This document shows, piece after piece, positions 1,043-32,320 of a stretch of 37,124 nt of DNA. Where the stretch lies: positions 1-37,124 of the forward strand of contig CAMZGO010000016.1 of the NCBI GenBank assembly GCA_947306425.1, given 5' to 3'. This DNA is from an uncultured Elusimicrobia bacterium (GTDB lineage Bacteria; Elusimicrobiota; Elusimicrobia; Elusimicrobiales; Elusimicrobiaceae). How positions within the stretch are numbered: position 1 is the first letter of the stretch; each line of letters begins with the position of its first letter. Made by a program: the position numbers and the translations under genes. Under the pieces are notes generated by a model, which did not search any database, was not told where the DNA came from, and saw only the letters and a list, made by a program, of their open reading frames with translations.

Positions 1043-3493
1043 TTATCTCCTCCTACTGCGTTTTGTTTTGACTGCTTTTTTTATTGCTCTTTTCGCGGTT
1101 TTCTTAATTGCTTTTTTAACCGTTTTTTGTGCTGCTTTTTTAACTGCTTTAGAATTTTCTAATTTCCCAAACACAACTTTAGCGACTTCATCCATGTGCG
1201 TTACAGGAATAAGATTTAATTCTTTCCTTATTTGTTCAGGTATTTCGGAAACATCTTTTTCATTAGTTTTTGGGTATAAGACAGTTTTAATATTTTCACG
1301 GTAAGCGGCCAAAAACTTTTCCTTAATACCGCCAACGGGTAAAACGCGCCCTGTTAAAGTTATTTCGCCCGTCATCGCAATACCTTTTTTAACGGGGGTA
1401 TTTGTTATTAAACTAACCAAAGCCGTACAAATTGCAGTACCGGCACTAGGGCCGTCTTTTGGAACGGCACCTTCAGGAAAGTGTATATGAATATCGTTTT
1501 TATCAAAATCAAACTTTTTGCCATACCCTTTTGCTCGGGCATAACTCAAAGCAGCTTGAACACTTTCCTTCATGACATTTCCAAGCGCACCGGTTAAAAT
1601 AAGGCGGCCTTTGCCCTTGAAAGAAGTGGCTTCTATGGCTAAAGTTTCCCCCCCGACCGAAGTCCACGCAAGGCCGGTAGAAATACCTATGCCGTTTTCT
1701 TCCGCCGCAAAATTTGTATATTTTGGTATACCAAGGAATTTTTCCAAATTGTCTTTATTAACGGTTACGGCTTTTTTGTTTTCAAGGTACATTTTGGCAA
1801 CTTTCCTTGCTATTGTTCCGATTTCGCGCTCAAAGCGGCGTACACCTGCTTCACGGACATAATCGCGCATAATACTGTCAAGCGCACCGGTGTCAATTTT
1901 TAAAATATCGTCCTTTAAACCATGCTCTTTTAACTGTCTGGGTATTAAATATCTTGTTGCAATTTCGCGCTTTTCATAATTTGTATAGCCGGAAAATTCT
2001 ATAACTTCCAGACGGTCCCGCAAAGTTGTCGGTATTGATGCTAAAGAATTTGCCGTCGTAATAAACATTACTTTTGAGACATCAAAAGGAACATCTAAAT
2101 AATGGTCAACAAAATCTTTATTTTGTTGCGGGTCCAAAAGTTCAAGGAGTGCGGCAGCCGGGTCCCCGCGCCAATCGGAACCCATCTTATCAATTTCATC
2201 TAACAAAAATACAGGGTTATTGGTTTTGGCCTTGCTGATTCCTTGAATAATGCGCCCGGGCATTGAGCCGATATAAGTGCGCCTGTGACCGCGAATTTCG
2301 CTTTCATCACGCACACCGCCAAGGGACATCCTTATAAACTTGCGCCCGATAGCCGATGCTATTGATTTCGCAATAGATGTTTTACCTGTTCCCGGTGGTC
2401 CTACAAAGCATAAAACCGGCCCTTGCAAACTCTTTGTAAGTTGGCGGACTGCAAGATATTCCAAAACGCGTTCTTTAACTTTTTCAAGCCCGAAGTGGTC
2501 TGCTTCCAAAACGGATTTGGCTTTATCCAAATCTAAAATATCCTCGCTTGAAATATTCCAAGGCATATTTACCAGCCAATCCAAAAAGGTTCTTGAAACC
2601 GTTGATTCCGGAGAAAAGGGCGCCATTTTGCTAAGACGTTCAATTTCTTTATTTGCAACTTCCGCCGCTTGTTTAGGTAAATTATTTTTCTTTACTTTCT
2701 CGCGCAATTCGTCTAAATCTTTCTGGAAATCGTCCTTTTGGCGCAACTCTTTTTGAATTGCTTTCATTTGTTCGTTAAGGTAATATTCTTTTTGGGATTT
2801 ATCAATTTGACGTCTGACTTTTGTATGTATTTTTTCTTCTAAATTGATGATTTCCACTTCGCTTGCAAGCAGTCTTAAAAGTTTTTCAAGGCGCTCTTTG
2901 ACATTAACGGCCTCTAAAATATTTTGCCTTTCTTGTGTTTTAACGATTATGTTTGAAGCAATAGTATCCGCTAATTTTGAAGGGTCCTCAATTTGTCTTA
3001 AGAAAGAGACACCTTCAATGGCAATGCGTTTTGATGCCATAGCATACTCTTCAAATTGGTCTAAAGTTTGACGCATAAGGGCCTGTATTTCTGCATCGGG
3101 GGCTGCATCATCTTGAGGGTAAGAAACCTCTGCAAACCAACATTTCGCTACACTATCAAAGACCAAATTATTTATTTTCGCACGTGCGATACCCTGTAAA
3201 AAAACTTTCATACTGCCGTCGGGCATTTTTAAAGATTGGGTTATTTCGGAAAGTACGCCGAATCTGTAAATATCATCCGCAGAAGGATCATTAATTTCCG
3301 CAACTTTTTGGGAAACGGAAAGTATATATTTGCCCGTTGTGCCAAGCGCAAGTTCCACTGCCATTACAGATTTTTTTCTGTCTACCGAAATCGGCAAAGA
3401 CATACCCGGAAACATCACCACATCCCTAATGACTATTGCCGGTAACCTGCTTGGGAAAATTGATTCTTTTTTTATATCATTTGTAAGGTCCAT
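1043..3493 (-). CDS. lon: ATP-dependent protease Lon (LonA type)
   Basis: Lon is a cytosolic AAA+ serine protease that degrades misfolded and regulatory proteins. The order is a Lon N-terminal substrate domain (about 10-205), a coiled coil (about 210-290), an AAA+ module with Walker A GPPGTGKT (365-372) and Walker B FLLDEIDKM, and a protease domain with the Ser-Lys dyad: S683 in PKDGPSAG and K726 in GGIKEKFLAA. At 816 aa it is slightly longer than E. coli Lon. The last ~35 residues (782-816) are an unusual histone H1-like tail of lysine, alanine, threonine and arginine ending RSRRR. The start has a good AAGGGGT ribosome-binding site. Upstream lie a clear sigma70 promoter and a CIRCE-like inverted repeat, which suggests heat-shock control. 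Confidence 0.97.
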   Translation of the reverse strand: MDLTNDIKKESIFPSRLPAIVIRDVVMFPGMSLPISVDRKKSVMAVELALGTTGKYILSVSQKVAEINDPSADDIYRFGVLSEITQSLKMPDGSMKVFLQGIARAKINNLVFDSVAKCWFAEVSYPQDDAAPDAEIQALMRQTLDQFEEYAMASKRIAIEGVSFLRQIEDPSKLADTIASNIIVKTQERQNILEAVNVKERLEKLLRLLASEVEIINLEEKIHTKVRRQIDKSQKEYYLNEQMKAIQKELRQKDDFQKDLDELREKVKKNNLPKQAAEVANKEIERLSKMAPFSPESTVSRTFLDWLVNMPWNISSEDILDLDKAKSVLEADHFGLEKVKERVLEYLAVRQLTKSLQGPVLCFVGPPGTGKTSIAKSIASAIGRKFIRMSLGGVRDESEIRGHRRTYIGSMPGRIIQGISKAKTNNPVFLLDEIDKMGSDWRGDPAAALLELLDPQQNKDFVDHYLDVPFDVSKVMFITTANSLASIPTTLRDRLEVIEFSGYTNYEKREIATRYLIPRQLKEHGLKDDILKIDTGALDSIMRDYVREAGVRRFEREIGTIARKVAKMYLENKKAVTVNKDNLEKFLGIPKYTNFAAEENGIGISTGLAWTSVGGETLAIEATSFKGKGRLILTGALGNVMKESVQAALSYARAKGYGKKFDFDKNDIHIHFPEGAVPKDGPSAGTAICTALVSLITNTPVKKGIAMTGEITLTGRVLPVGGIKEKFLAAYRENIKTVLYPKTNEKDVSEIPEQIRKELNLIPVTHMDEVAKVVFGKLENSKAVKKAAQKTVKKAIKKTAKRAIKKAVKTKRSRRR

Positions 3494-23936: not shown

Positions 23937-23971
23937 ATAGTGGTTATTTAACTTTTAAAGGGGATGTATTT

Positions 23972-25786
23972 ATGAAAAGACTATTTAGTGTTTCCTTAAT
24001 ATTTAGTGTTGTATTATCTGTTTGCGGAAGTTACTTATTTGCCAGTTCCAGCGACAGTCTGTTAGTAAATGATGACAGAATTTTTGCATTAGGTAATAAG
24101 TATACTTCTTTAATTGCCTCTATGTATGAGGAAGAAACTTCCCATATTGGTCTTAAAGGTTACCATTACAATTTGGAAAAGCACACAGCACAAAATGAGA
24201 TTGCAAAAATTAAATCACTTACCGCTTTTTCAGAAGCAATAGAAGAAATTGACCCAAGTTCTCTATCCCCTTTTGCACAAGCGGATTACTACACTTTGAA
24301 AGAGTTAGTAGGGTTAAAATATTTTAACGCTAAAATTAAAAACCAGTTGGAAGAAGACCCTCTTTGGTATTTACAACCCATAGACGGTGTTTACGAATTA
24401 TTAATTAAAAATTTCCTGCCCGGACAAGAACGTCTTAGTTATGCATTGAAAAGGCTTGAGATGATACCGACATCTCTGCAAGATGCTGAAATGAATATTA
24501 CTAATCCGCCTGATTTAACTTTACGCCTTGCCATAGAAAAAACAAAACTTGAAAATACTTATCTTCCGAACTTAACCGCTTTGGTTCTGAGAATTTCAGA
24601 TGATAAAGTAACGAAGAATAAAATAAAACAACTTTCTGAAGATATTAAAACATCCTTGAGCAGATATGAAACTTTTTTAAATAGCAAACTTAAAGAAAAA
24701 GAATTCTCCGACTTCAGAATCGGGGAAGAAAATTACAAATATTTGTACCAAGATGTATATTCCGTACCTATGAAATACAGTAAATTGGAAAATCTCTTGG
24801 AAAAGACCTTAAATAAGGCACAAAAAAATCTTATTGAAGGAATAACGCCCAAAGTTCTGCCATTGTTAAGTGAAGAAGAAAAACAAAACAGAACGATAAA
24901 AAAGAACGTAAAAATTTATCCGAGTGACTATTATTCGCTGGCAGAAAAATATAAAAATGCACCGGAGTATGATAATGTTCTTAAATCCTACTCAACAGAA
25001 ATTAAAAAAGCAGACCAATTCCTTACAACAAAACGTTTGTTTCCTGCCCTTACTTTACCGATATCTATAATTACTGCTCCGCCGATATTAAGGGCTGAAC
25101 ATGAACAAGTAACCATTTATCCGCCTGTACCTTTAGCAGATAAACAAAGTGCAGATATTTTGGTGTCTTTACCTAAAAAAGCAGGGATGAACAAATCAGA
25201 TTTTGAGAAAGAATATAATTATGGTAAAATTAAATTCAACACAGCGGAATTTGTAACACCAGGAAAAACCTTAATTTACTCCGTAGAACCGGCAAATTTA
25301 TCTTTACTTTACAAACTTTCAAACGATATTTTTTACATCCATGGCTGGATAAATTATTCCCTCAATACAGCTGCTGAAAACGGTTTGTTAAATACCGAAC
25401 AAGATAATATAAACTTGCTATGGTTTAATTATAAGAAGGCAATTTATGCTTTAGCGGACTATAAGTTACAAACCTTACAATTTGATTATACGTCTGCATT
25501 AGCGTATATAACACAAGCAGGTATTGATTCTAAAGAAGCAGAGGTCTATTTGGACTATTTGGCCCTGCATCCCTTTGATGCCGTTTCATACATCGTAGGT
25601 GCACAAGAATTTGAGCGCCTAAAAGCAAAATACAAAAAGGAACTAGGCAAAAAATTTGACTTACTTACCTTCCATACAAAAATTCTTTCCCTTGGAAGAA
25701 TACCTCTGATATCAATGGAAGAAGCCCTAAAAAGGGCCTACACAAAAAAGGAAATTGACAGTTATTTCAGCATGACCTATTTCTAA
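23972..25786 (+). CDS. Exported DUF885-family protein with degenerate metal-binding motif (putative pseudo-peptidase)
   Basis: A signal peptide (MKRLFSVSLIFSVVLSVCGS) starts a 604-aa protein. FRIGEENYKYLYQD (about 250) and the C-terminal run from YLDYLALHPFDAVSYIVG to FDLLTFHTKILSLGRIPL match DUF885 proteins, zinc-peptidase-like enzymes with a HEAIPGHH motif and a downstream EGWALY. Here the aligned positions read EFVTPGKT (426-433) and HGWINY (457-462). Pro-Gly and Gly-Trp remain, but the His, Glu and His ligands and the EGWA Glu are gone. The fold is probably kept and catalysis lost. The ATG at 23972 has GGGG nine bases upstream. The gene is intact, with its own promoter and terminator. The family call is from memory. 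Confidence 0.75.
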   Translation: MKRLFSVSLIFSVVLSVCGSYLFASSSDSLLVNDDRIFALGNKYTSLIASMYEEETSHIGLKGYHYNLEKHTAQNEIAKIKSLTAFSEAIEEIDPSSLSPFAQADYYTLKELVGLKYFNAKIKNQLEEDPLWYLQPIDGVYELLIKNFLPGQERLSYALKRLEMIPTSLQDAEMNITNPPDLTLRLAIEKTKLENTYLPNLTALVLRISDDKVTKNKIKQLSEDIKTSLSRYETFLNSKLKEKEFSDFRIGEENYKYLYQDVYSVPMKYSKLENLLEKTLNKAQKNLIEGITPKVLPLLSEEEKQNRTIKKNVKIYPSDYYSLAEKYKNAPEYDNVLKSYSTEIKKADQFLTTKRLFPALTLPISIITAPPILRAEHEQVTIYPPVPLADKQSADILVSLPKKAGMNKSDFEKEYNYGKIKFNTAEFVTPGKTLIYSVEPANLSLLYKLSNDIFYIHGWINYSLNTAAENGLLNTEQDNINLLWFNYKKAIYALADYKLQTLQFDYTSALAYITQAGIDSKEAEVYLDYLALHPFDAVSYIVGAQEFERLKAKYKKELGKKFDLLTFHTKILSLGRIPLISMEEALKRAYTKKEIDSYFSMTYF

Positions 25787-25805
25787 AATATTATAGTTAC
25801 ATCAA

Positions 25806-25836
25806 AAGCCCGCGTTAAGTTCTGCGCGGGCTTTTT
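25806..25836 (+). terminator. Terminator after the DUF885-like gene
   Basis: AAGCCCGCG pairs with CGCGGGCTT and is followed by a T run. Confidence 0.9.
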
Positions 25837-27231: not shown

Positions 27232-27262
27232 TTGTACCCTTTTGCGCGTAATTTTATATAAT
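27232..27262 (+). promoter_or_regulatory. Promoter directly upstream of the 27269 gene
   Basis: TTGTAC (27232-27237) and TATAAT (27257-27262) with a long 19-base spacer (17 if TATATA at 27255 is used). The ATG comes six bases after the -10. Confidence 0.5.
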
Positions 27263-27268
27263 AAATAT

Positions 27269-28762
27269 ATGCGTAAACCGGCACTTACTTTAATATTCTG
27301 TTTGTGTACCGTTTTTGGTTTTGCCGTATCTTTTAGTTCAAAAGATAAGGGTTTTAGTATTTCCCTTTCTTCAAAATGGCAAAATGAGGCAACAAAAGAT
27401 ACACAAGTATTAAATTTGCAAAACGGGGCAAATAAAATAATCGTAATACCATTGGATAAATGCAATCAGGTAGATTGCCTTGAAAAAATTATAAAAAACA
27501 GAATTAAACAAGTTAAAAGTAAAAAGTTTAAACTTATAAAAAATACTTATTCGGGGGAAGAAATTAAAAGAACTGAATTTTCTACCTTGGACCCTTTACT
27601 TTCCTTTAGTTATATTGCTGATGATACAAATTATACTGAGGGTTATTTTTTAGCGGATTCAAAAGGATATAAAATTGAGGTCGTAGGTTTAAGCGATGTT
27701 GATGCCGCAGTTAACCTTTCCTTTATAACTCCAAAACCAAAAGAAATTCAGGACTTACCCCTAATTACCGAAGAAAAACCCTTAATTGAAGAAAATATAA
27801 TCGTACCGGAAATACAAGAAACCCAACGTCAAACCCTTGCCCAAACATTTTCAAGTAAACAATCTTTGCAAAACAAAAAAGAAAATAAAATTTCTATTTC
27901 TAAAAAATTTTCTTCCATAATTTTTTTGGTTTTTATTTATATATTTGTTGCAGTAAGTTTTTTCTTTTACAACATTTTCTTTGCACAAAAACCGGATAAA
28001 ACACCCACTAACCCTAAATCATTTTATCCTATAAGAGGAGCACGTTTATATGGTTCGCCGGATTTATTTTTGCGGCTTTATGACAGTCAAGGTCAAAATT
28101 TTGTTGTTACTTCCCAGAGGTGGAGTAGTTTTTTAATGGAATTCGGTTTTTATGGCACCTTGTTTTTCCTATTCTTACATTTTGTTGTAGAATCATTGAC
28201 TAATCAAGGGCCCGGCACAAATACAGTTTTAGTAAACACCTTTCTTTCATTGTGTTATTTGTTTGCAATTTTCGGTTTAATATTTATGTTGAGCGGTAAA
28301 GTGCTTAATATTCTTTTCCCACCGGCTATCTACATATATACCGATAAAGGTACAATATTATTTAAAATTATTAGGCGCGGAAGCGGAATTTTAAATTATG
28401 CTTATTTAGTTCTGACAAACAATGATGCCGTATTGTTCCGGTTGGAAACGCCGAAACTTTTTTTGTTAAGAAAATTTATGCTCTTGGATAAAACAGGAAG
28501 ACTTGCCATAATAAAAGAAAAATCCTTACCAAAAGCAATTGCACGCAAAATATTTGGTCATTTGGGCGGAACACTTAGGGCAAGTTATACTGTTGAAGGC
28601 AAAAATGAAAGTAAAGGGGAAATTTTATCATTGCGTAGGATAAATACTCAATTCCAGGCAGATATAAATAAACCTCAAGCAATTTCCCCCAGTGCAATGC
28701 TTGCTGTGCTGGCAGTAATTTTTGTAATAGATAGAGATAAATATTATCCATGGTTTAATTAA
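27269..28762 (+). CDS. Membrane protein of unknown function with N-terminal signal sequence
   Basis: I do not recognise the family. The start MRKPALTLIFCLCTVFGFAV is a signal sequence. An extracytoplasmic beta-rich domain (about 22-165) with a CNQVDC pair follows, then a Pro/Gln/Glu linker, a membrane helix (about 214-238), a soluble segment starting FYPIRGARLYGSPDLFLRLY, two more helices (about 293-311 and 320-348) and a C-terminal domain of about 150 residues. A TTG start at 27242 is possible but would overlap the promoter and spoil the signal peptide. No Shine-Dalgarno is visible, consistent with a leaderless message. The stop is one base before the ftcD-type gene. Confidence 0.75.
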   Translation: MRKPALTLIFCLCTVFGFAVSFSSKDKGFSISLSSKWQNEATKDTQVLNLQNGANKIIVIPLDKCNQVDCLEKIIKNRIKQVKSKKFKLIKNTYSGEEIKRTEFSTLDPLLSFSYIADDTNYTEGYFLADSKGYKIEVVGLSDVDAAVNLSFITPKPKEIQDLPLITEEKPLIEENIIVPEIQETQRQTLAQTFSSKQSLQNKKENKISISKKFSSIIFLVFIYIFVAVSFFFYNIFFAQKPDKTPTNPKSFYPIRGARLYGSPDLFLRLYDSQGQNFVVTSQRWSSFLMEFGFYGTLFFLFLHFVVESLTNQGPGTNTVLVNTFLSLCYLFAIFGLIFMLSGKVLNILFPPAIYIYTDKGTILFKIIRRGSGILNYAYLVLTNNDAVLFRLETPKLFLLRKFMLLDKTGRLAIIKEKSLPKAIARKIFGHLGGTLRASYTVEGKNESKGEILSLRRINTQFQADINKPQAISPSAMLAVLAVIFVIDRDKYYPWFN

Positions 28763-29821: not shown

Positions 29822-32320
29822 ATGGCCCTAAAAACTTTAAATTTGTACAGCCCTGTTAATGGGGTAATGATTGATATTTCCAAAGTACCTGACGATGCCT
29901 TTGCGGAAAAAATGCTTGGGGACGGTGTCGCTTTTGAACCGGAAGAAAATTTTATTTCCGCACCTTCGGACGCCACGGTTAAAACGCTTCACAAATGTTT
30001 ACATGCCATAGTACTTGAAAAGGACGGTTTTGAAATTTTAATTCATATCGGTGTTGATACTGTTTCGCTGAGAGGACAAGGCTTTAAAGCTCTTGTTAAA
30101 GACGGTGATAGCGTAAAAAGAGGACAAAAGATTATTGAATTTGACCGGGATTTTTTAGCAAAAAATGCTAAAAGCAATATAGTAATTATGGTTATTGCCA
30201 CACCTTTGGAAGTAACATTGAAAAAAGAAAACTTAATTAAAGTATCACCTCAAACAAAAGTTTTTGATGCTTTCTATCAAGAAATATTACCACAAGTGGT
30301 TGAACCAAGAATCTTCCAAACATTTACCAGCGAAGAATTCAGTATTCTAAATAAAACCGGGCTTCATGCAAGGCCGGCAGGGGAAATTGCAACTTTAGCA
30401 CAAAGCTTTAAAAATACAGATATTTTTCTTCTAAAAGGGCAAAAACAAGCAAAGGCAAAAAGTGTAGTAGAAATTCTAGGACTTTCTTTGGAATACGGGG
30501 ACAAAGTAAAAGTTATGGCAACCGGTGCCGATGCAGAATTTGCTGCAGTTGAAGTTAAAAATTTTATTTTAAGTGAACTCAATGATAACTTAATACCCCC
30601 TAAATTGCAGCCTGAAATACCTTCAAGAATTCATATTGCCGGGGAAGCTCAATTTAAAGGTATCGGTATTTTTGACGGGTTAAGTATCGGTAAAGCTTAT
30701 GTTTTAAGGGGTTACAAATTTGATATACAAGAAAAGTCTCCGTTCACTGTAGAGCAAGAACTTGCAAAATTTCAAGGTTCACTTAAAAATGTCAAAAGTA
30801 CCTTAGATAAAGAACGCCATGCCGTTTACGGGCAAAAAGACAGGGAAGAAATATTACTCGCCCACATTACTATTTTGGAAGACCCTTTCCTAATTGATGA
30901 AACTGAACAATTAATAAAACAAGGTTATAGTGCTGCTTTTGCGTTTTCTTCCGCAGTGAAGCGCGCAATAGATGTTTTGAAAAAGGCAGGTAATGCTATA
31001 TTAAGATCTAGAGTAGCAGATTTTGTTGACTTGGAAACCCGCTTGCTTGCTGATTTAACCGGCCAAAATTACGGGCTTCCCAAATTTACGGAAGATACAA
31101 TAATAATTGCCAAAGAATTGCTGTCCCATCACTTAAACGACTTAAACGAACACATAACCGGCATAGTTATGGCAGAAGGGTCCGCCCTATCCCATGTATC
31201 GATAATGTTGAAAACACTTGGCATTCCTACAGTCATAGGTGTAGGCCAAGATATTTTGACAATTTCAGACGGGGCAGATATTATTTTAGATTCCAAACTC
31301 GGTACAATTACCGTTAATCCCACAAATATAAGCGAGGTAAAAAAGCAGACAGAAATTATTAAAATAAACCGCCAAGAAAATATGGCTCATGCTTTTGAAC
31401 CCGCTGTAACAAAAGATGGTGTTGAAATTACGGTTACGGGAAATGTCGGGACCTTAGACCAGGCCAAAAAAAGTGCCGAGCAAGGCGCACAAGGTATAGG
31501 ACTTGTAAGGACGGAATTTTTATTTGCAAGCGCGAAAAAAGCACCAACCGAACGAGAGCAATATGAAATTTATCAAAAAATAGTTGATTTACAAAACGGA
31601 AACCCGGTTATAATCAGAACCTTAGATGTCGGCGCCGATAAACCTATATCGTTTATTCCTCAAATTAAAGAAGAAAATCCAATCCTCGGTAGGCGCGGAA
31701 TAAGAACATCCTTTGCAAACGTGGAAATTTTAAAAACACAACTTCGCGCAATAATGCGCGTTAAACCATACGGTATGGCAAAAATAATGATACCTATGGT
31801 AACTTTTATAGAAGAAATTTCTACTGTCCGCCGTTTTGTTAAAGAAGAACAAAGTAAACTTGGGATTGATAAGGTATCCCTTGGCATGATGGTTGAAGTT
31901 CCAGCCGCTGCCTTAATGGCCGAAGAGTTTGCAAAGAAAGTAGACTTCTTTTCCATAGGTACTAATGATTTGACACAATATACTTTGGCATTAGACAGAT
32001 CGCACCCGACTTTAAATTTTCTTTCCGACAGTCTAAATCCTTCAATTTTGCGTATGGTAAAAATGACTGTTGAAGGGGCTAAAAAATATGGTAAACCTGT
32101 TGGTGTTTGCGGTGCCATTGCGAGCGAACCTGCAGGCGCAATTTTACTTATCGGGCTTGGAATAAGGGCCCTAAGTGTAGTGCCGAGTGCAATTGCTGAT
32201 ATTAAAGCACTCATACGTAGAATTGATATCAAAAAATGCGAACAAGTGGCACAAAGAGCAATAAACTGTACTAGTGTTGCGGAAGTAAGATATTTGGTAA
32301 AAACGGAGTTTGAACTTTAA
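29822..32320 (+). CDS. Fused PTS phosphotransferase: EIIA(Glc-type)-HPr-Enzyme I
   Basis: One 832-aa polypeptide carries three PTS steps. EIIA of the glucose type (1-150) has its phospho-His in EILIHIGVDTV (H75). HPr (about 170-255) has GLHARPA (H182). Enzyme I (about 270-832) has its phospho-His in ALSHVSIM (H458), DVGADKPISFIP, RTEFLF, GTNDLTQYTLALDR and the C-terminal active-site Cys in GVCGAIA (C763). Phosphate would pass from PEP to EI, HPr and EIIA within or between chains, then to the IIB domain of the next gene. Good AGAGG site before ATG. The HPr region keeps a Ser (AKSVVEILG) near the Ser46 site, but no HPr kinase is in the window. Confidence 0.95.
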   Translation: MALKTLNLYSPVNGVMIDISKVPDDAFAEKMLGDGVAFEPEENFISAPSDATVKTLHKCLHAIVLEKDGFEILIHIGVDTVSLRGQGFKALVKDGDSVKRGQKIIEFDRDFLAKNAKSNIVIMVIATPLEVTLKKENLIKVSPQTKVFDAFYQEILPQVVEPRIFQTFTSEEFSILNKTGLHARPAGEIATLAQSFKNTDIFLLKGQKQAKAKSVVEILGLSLEYGDKVKVMATGADAEFAAVEVKNFILSELNDNLIPPKLQPEIPSRIHIAGEAQFKGIGIFDGLSIGKAYVLRGYKFDIQEKSPFTVEQELAKFQGSLKNVKSTLDKERHAVYGQKDREEILLAHITILEDPFLIDETEQLIKQGYSAAFAFSSAVKRAIDVLKKAGNAILRSRVADFVDLETRLLADLTGQNYGLPKFTEDTIIIAKELLSHHLNDLNEHITGIVMAEGSALSHVSIMLKTLGIPTVIGVGQDILTISDGADIILDSKLGTITVNPTNISEVKKQTEIIKINRQENMAHAFEPAVTKDGVEITVTGNVGTLDQAKKSAEQGAQGIGLVRTEFLFASAKKAPTEREQYEIYQKIVDLQNGNPVIIRTLDVGADKPISFIPQIKEENPILGRRGIRTSFANVEILKTQLRAIMRVKPYGMAKIMIPMVTFIEEISTVRRFVKEEQSKLGIDKVSLGMMVEVPAAALMAEEFAKKVDFFSIGTNDLTQYTLALDRSHPTLNFLSDSLNPSILRMVKMTVEGAKKYGKPVGVCGAIASEPAGAILLIGLGIRALSVVPSAIADIKALIRRIDIKKCEQVAQRAINCTSVAEVRYLVKTEFEL

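What the first reader, a model, noticed from the sequence alone, without database searches (positions are those of the whole stretch)
25247..25357. DUF885-family protein without its metal-binding motif
Family members carry HEAIPGHH and, downstream, EGWALY. The corresponding sites here read EFVTPGKT and HGWINY. Flanking family phrases are well kept, the frame is intact over 604 codons, and the gene has its own promoter and terminator. A kept fold with a lost active site suggests a binding or regulatory pseudo-enzyme in the periplasm.
Basis: partly seen in the sequence, partly recalled or inferred. Interest (0 to 1): 0.65.

Follow-up and report, generated by a model that had tools for sequence, protein, structure and literature searches.

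The report
Order-wide dead exported peptidase-fold protein
An exported bacterial protein that kept the shape of a zinc peptidase but lost all of its metal-binding residues turns out to be a shared, preserved feature of a whole bacterial order, so it probably binds peptides or partner proteins instead of cutting them.

Summary
The 604-aa protein (window 23972-25786, +) is a DUF885 member (PF05960, E 2.8e-39) whose four catalytic and metal-site residues read E426, F427, K432 and H457 instead of H, E, H, E. The predicted fold is intact (pLDDT 92.3; VIA Z 31.1 to 3u24, 535 residues aligned, rmsd 5.0).

The loss is ancient. All 130 orthologues read from Elusimicrobiales genomes lack the full site (99 keep none of the four residues, 29 one, 2 two), while all 40 other DUF885 proteins read (39 from other orders of the phylum, one paralogue inside the order) keep it whole. 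The 130 form one clade (support 0.999) whose sister is intact. The lost glutamate became asparagine in 116 of 130. dN/dS of 0.03-0.21 and signal peptides throughout argue for a selected, exported protein.

In the environmental family the gene sits directly behind lon in a tig-clpP-lon cluster (45 of 45 loci). In the window, lon is 20 kb away.

Binding or regulation is inferred, not shown. I favour a peptide- or protein-binding role in the envelope. New variant of a known kind (pseudopeptidases), interest 0.5.

The parts
23972..25786 (+). DUF885-fold pseudopeptidase gene, 604 aa plus stop
   Evidence: PF05960 E 2.8e-39; only copy in its genome; AlphaFold2 pLDDT 92.3
23957..23964 (+). ribosome-binding site AAAGGGGA, 7 nt before the ATG
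   Evidence: read from the sequence; supports the 604-aa start over the 619-aa ORF start
23972..24043 (+). signal peptide, about 24 aa (MKRLFSVSLIFSVVLSVCGSYLFA)
   Evidence: read by eye; orthologues have the same kind of N-terminus; cleavage site not computed
25247..25270 (+). site of the lost HExxPGH motif, residues 426-433, EFVTPGKT
25340..25357 (+). site of the lost EGW motif, residues 457-462, HGWINY
25804..25835 (+). intrinsic terminator, 12-bp stem then a U run
   Evidence: -21 kcal/mol, z -4.3
1043..3493 (-). lon protease gene, the ancestral neighbour, now 20 kb away
   Evidence: adjacency in relatives

Best explanation
It is an exported pseudopeptidase: a DUF885-fold protein that lost its metal site once, on the stem of the order Elusimicrobiales, and has been kept since under purifying selection as a non-catalytic protein (shown by sequence, tree and fold prediction; about 0.9 likely on its own). 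How I think it works (inferred; about 0.5 to 0.6): the helical clamshell that once held a peptide for cleavage now binds peptides or unfolded or partner proteins in the periplasm without cutting them, serving envelope protein quality control. That fits its ancestral place behind tig, clpP and lon. In the gut lineages, including the window, more of the old pocket residues have gone, so there it may act more as a scaffold or partner-binding protein than as a peptide binder.
For: Site residues H426, E427, H432 and E457: 40 of 40 outside the clade, full set in 0 of 130 inside; E457 became N in 116 of 130. Monophyly 0.999 with intact sister L168, support 0.999. Fold kept: window model pLDDT 92.3, Z 31.1, 30.8 and 28.8 to 3u24, 3o0y and 3iuk; the next rows, other clan peptidases, at 14.7 and below. 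A representative of the other family behaves alike. dN/dS 0.03-0.21 in pairs across three groups. Signal peptides throughout. Of 26 non-catalytic positions conserved in at least 90% of intact members, family f2 keeps 21, genus g2 16, genus g1 14. In f2, lon lies directly upstream in 45 of 45 loci and an ABC ATPase directly downstream in 49 of 49. Precedents of metallopeptidase relatives that use the dead site to bind proteins are reviewed in PMC11266112.
Against: No ligand, partner or phenotype is known. Tig, ClpP and Lon are cytosolic while this protein is exported, so the linkage may be only a shared transcript or history. The linkage is broken in most gut lineages. No coordinates were available, so I could not check whether the cleft is still open or what lines it. 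Pocket residues have eroded in the window's genus.
Confidence: 0.6

Rival explanations
1. Non-catalytic subunit or scaffold: it works through its outer surface, holding together or regulating another envelope complex, and the old cleft plays no part.
For: The old pocket residues are eroding in the gut genera while the fold is kept; new near-invariant positions such as P401 and A523 appeared in the clade.
Against: In family f2 21 of 26 conserved non-catalytic positions remain, which a pure surface scaffold would not need. No partner gene travels with it through the whole order.
Confidence: 0.25
2. It is still an enzyme, with a different non-metal chemistry in the same cleft.
For: E457 became one specific residue, Asn, in 116 of 130; W459 and G458 are invariant in the clade and Y462 nearly so.
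Against: No new conserved set of catalytic-type residues appears: positions 426, 427 and 432 vary freely.
Confidence: 0.1
3. Metal ligands are supplied by other residues, so it is an unorthodox metallopeptidase.
For: The window has E426 and H457, the ligand types swapped, and so have three of its nearest relatives; H433 is kept in 55 of 130 and H568 in 107 of 130.
Against: The swap is not kept even among the five closest species (L006 has N457), and no trio of His, Glu or Asp is conserved through the clade. H568 is also invariant in intact members, where it accompanies the normal ligands.
Confidence: 0.05
4. A decaying pseudogene or an assembly error.
For: Only the loss of catalytic residues itself.
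Against: 130 intact readings from independent genomes and dN/dS 0.03-0.21.
Confidence: 0.01

Closest known systems
DUF885 proteins of solved structure: 3u24 (Shewanella), 3o0y (Colwellia), 3iuk (Arthrobacter)
   Same: Whole fold, length, export in the two lipoproteins, and the PG and GW..Y positions around the site
   Different: They carry HExxPGH and EGW; the window protein and its clade do not
L168, the intact sister in the same class of Elusimicrobiota
   Same: Closest relative of the clade (support 0.999), one gene behind lon in its genome
   Different: Carries HEAIPGHH and EGWALY
Oligoendopeptidase F and Pz peptidase (M3), M32 carboxypeptidases, ACE (M2)
   Same: Distant shared helical clamshell, Z about 9-15
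   Different: About 5-12% identity; active HExxH enzymes, as known from the literature
Known pseudometallopeptidases such as alpha-MPP, Ebp1 and Goe
   Same: Peptidase fold kept, metal residues lost, non-catalytic role (PMC11266112)
   Different: Other peptidase families (M16, M24, M13); the section of that review that I read lists no DUF885 case

Membership tests
DUF885 (PF05960), as a protein family | Profile match above the gathering cut-off | tested here: met
   136.6 bits against 32.4, profile positions 5-531 of 532
DUF885 (PF05960), as a protein family | DUF885 fold | tested here: met
   Z 31.1, 30.8 and 28.8 to the three solved members; rmsd 3.3-5.0; 508-535 residues aligned
Active DUF885 peptidase (Peptidase_MA clan) | HExxPGH with both His and the Glu | tested here: not met
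   EFVTPGK in the window; 0 of 130 in the clade keep the full set
Active DUF885 peptidase (Peptidase_MA clan) | Third ligand Glu in EGW | tested here: not met
   His in the window, Asn in 116 of 130
Active DUF885 peptidase (Peptidase_MA clan) | Bound metal and hydrolytic activity | not testable with these tools
   Needs purified protein
Pseudopeptidase | Homologous fold without catalytic residues | tested here: met
Pseudopeptidase | Conserved as a functional gene | tested here: met
   dN/dS 0.03-0.21; a DUF885 gene in 135 of 149 genomes of the order
Pseudopeptidase | A demonstrated non-catalytic role | not testable with these tools
   No binding or genetic data

The most novel reading that the evidence does not exclude
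A whole bacterial order converted an exported peptidase, once and irreversibly, into a non-cutting periplasmic peptide- or client-binding chaperone that was wired into the tig-clpP-lon protein quality control operon.
Probability: 0.2. Interest if true: 0.7.

Novelty: new variant of a known kind. Interest (0 to 1): 0.5.

Why it matters
DUF885 is still listed in Pfam as a family of unknown function. Here one branch shows a single, placeable loss of catalysis followed by long preservation across about 130 species, with an intact sister for comparison. That gives a natural experiment on what the fold does besides cutting, and a conserved exported protein to study in a poorly known phylum. Names such as 'DUF885 peptidase', if given to these genes by automatic annotation, would be misleading.

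Tried and rejected
Single-protein scan of genome contigs gave no relative; the scan with alignment A2 gave 53 loci. NCBIfam has no model that matches. No phage match. The HrcA hit in Pfam (E 0.01, below cut-off) was taken as chance. A regulatory partnership with an active DUF885 paralogue was rejected as a general model: the window genome has one copy and only one genome of the order has an intact second copy (L143). Loss of lon as the reason for the move in gut lineages was rejected: lon is present in 50 of 51 good genomes of the family. Papers: 13 mention DUF885; the one opened (PMC12572635) has only a computed zinc site in one member, two His and one Glu. No paper held joins Elusimicrobiota and 'pseudoenzyme'.

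Full report
Observation. The ORF at 23972-25786 (+) encodes 604 aa behind a good ribosome-binding site. It matches PF05960 (DUF885) at E 2.8e-39 over nearly the whole profile and the solved DUF885 proteins 3u24, 3o0y and 3iuk by sequence profile. The terminator is confirmed. A consensus promoter is not.

Organism. The window lies in a 1.44-Mb genome. Named records were found with the profile of the sister family f2: most record titles read Elusimicrobia, Elusimicrobiota or Elusimicrobiales, and a few say only 'bacterium'. The order is therefore most likely Elusimicrobiales. One single-contig relative of the same family, G085, has 1,643,562 bases, which from memory is the size of the Elusimicrobium minutum Pei191 chromosome. 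I did not verify this.

Extent of the loss. A DUF885 gene is present in 82 of 90 genomes of the family by protein search and in 135 of 149 of the order by profile. I read 130 orthologous proteins from the order and 40 other DUF885 proteins: 39 from other orders of the phylum, plus the second copy L143 inside the order. The four positions are H, E, H, E in 40 of 40 of the others and in none of the 130; 99 keep none, 29 keep one and 2 keep two. E457 is Asn in 116 of 130. G431, G458 and W459 are invariant in the 130, P430 and Y462 in 128. I take 426, 432 and 457 as the ligands because they are invariant in intact members and because a computed zinc site in one DUF885 protein has two His and one Glu (PMC12572635). 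This was not tested by structure here; position 433 (His in 30 of the 40) is the alternative for the second His.

History. A FastTree tree of 170 proteins puts all 130 in one clade (0.999), next to intact L168 (0.999). L168 carries HEAIPGHH and EGWALY. One loss on the stem of the order is the simplest reading; the tree rests on one gene and was rooted with an arbitrary outgroup member. Tips of genera g1 and g2 (small genomes) are about twice as far from the clade's root as those of f2 (2.3-2.4 against 1.1).

Selection and fold. dN/dS is 0.03-0.21 in 32 pairs with a usable value across g1, g2 and f2; for the more distant pairs dS is saturated. AlphaFold2 on an 80-sequence alignment gives pLDDT 92.3 and pTM 0.91. 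VIA-align: 3u24 Z 31.1 (rmsd 5.0, 535 aligned), 3o0y Z 30.8 (3.3, 527), 3iuk Z 28.8 (4.3, 508); other clan peptidases follow at Z 14.7 and below. Foldseek agrees (E 9.6e-18 to 3u24). A representative of f2 gives pLDDT 90.6 and Z 32.3, 31.9 and 31.1 to the same three. The fold is kept on both sides of the order.

What was kept and what was lost. Of 26 other positions that at least 90% of intact members share, f2 keeps 21, g2 16 and g1 14. In f2 the metal site is lost while R447, E464, R489, R492, D496 and H568 remain; in the window's genus most of these have gone too. New near-invariant positions in the clade are P401 and A523. This suggests catalysis was lost first and pocket residues later in the small-genome lineages. 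It is an inference from conservation, as I had no coordinates.

Location in the cell. Nearly all complete members begin with a basic, hydrophobic signal sequence, many ending in an Ala-x-Ala-like motif. Export is therefore likely. The cleavage site was not computed.

Neighbourhood. In f2 the order is tig, clpP, lon, DUF885, ABC ATPase, ABC-2 permease, TPR protein, all on one strand. Among the 53 loci, lon is directly upstream in 45 of 45 with enough sequence, and the ABC ATPase directly downstream in 49 of 49. The one member of genus g4, in the window's own family, has the same order (L207). In the intact sister L212 the order is lon, class-V aminotransferase, DUF885, so the link with lon may be older than the loss; this rests on one contig. 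In most other genomes of the window's family that I looked at, the gene stands divergently next to tig; in the window's five-species group it stands before a MATE transporter gene, without tig. In the window lon is at 1043-3493 (-), 20 kb away. In 23 family genomes with both on one contig the distance is 2 to 275 kb.

Mechanism. Shown: fold (predicted), loss, age, selection, likely export. Inferred: the cleft binds peptides or proteins without cutting. The tig-clpP-lon linkage is a hint of a protein-quality role but does not prove it, because those proteins are cytosolic. Rivals are a surface scaffold (0.25), a new chemistry (0.10) and a rebuilt metal site (0.05). For the last, the window's E426 and H457 look like swapped ligands, but L006, one of the five closest species, has N457.

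Novelty. Pseudopeptidases are a known kind (PMC11266112). I found no description of one in DUF885 in the held papers; the papers library is partial. I rate it a new variant of a known kind.

Noticed in passing
L214 (G173:C5:26000-40000): A DUF885 domain with an intact HESYPGHH site lies inside an open frame of 17,755 aa; the 4,666 aa read also hold M48 peptidase, MGDG synthase/GT28, glycosyltransferase, PLD-like and mechanosensitive-channel matches. A giant multi-domain gene in a relative of the same class.
   Followed up: partly
L143 (G099:C4:35600-38500): The only second DUF885 copy read in the order has an intact site (HEALPGHD, EGWAMY) and falls outside the pseudopeptidase clade.
   Followed up: partly
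window 25247-25357 and L009, L011, L013: Four of the five closest species carry Glu at the first His position and His at the third-ligand Glu position, as if swapped; the fifth (L006) has Glu and Asn.
   Followed up: partly
L089 and L092: Two g2 members keep both E427 and H432 (ELIPGHYYQ, EIVPGHYYQ), the most of any in the clade, but lack H426 and E457.
   Followed up: no
G088 (family f1, genus g5, 2.2 Mb, 99% complete): This genome has no DUF885 and no Lon match, unlike nearly all its relatives.
   Followed up: no
window 27242-28762 (+): A 506-aa ORF with no Pfam match at 1e-5, between the MATE gene and a 324-aa gene; conserved in the window's five-species group.
   Followed up: no
window 29822-32320 (+): One gene fuses PTS EIIA, HPr and enzyme I domains.
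   Followed up: no
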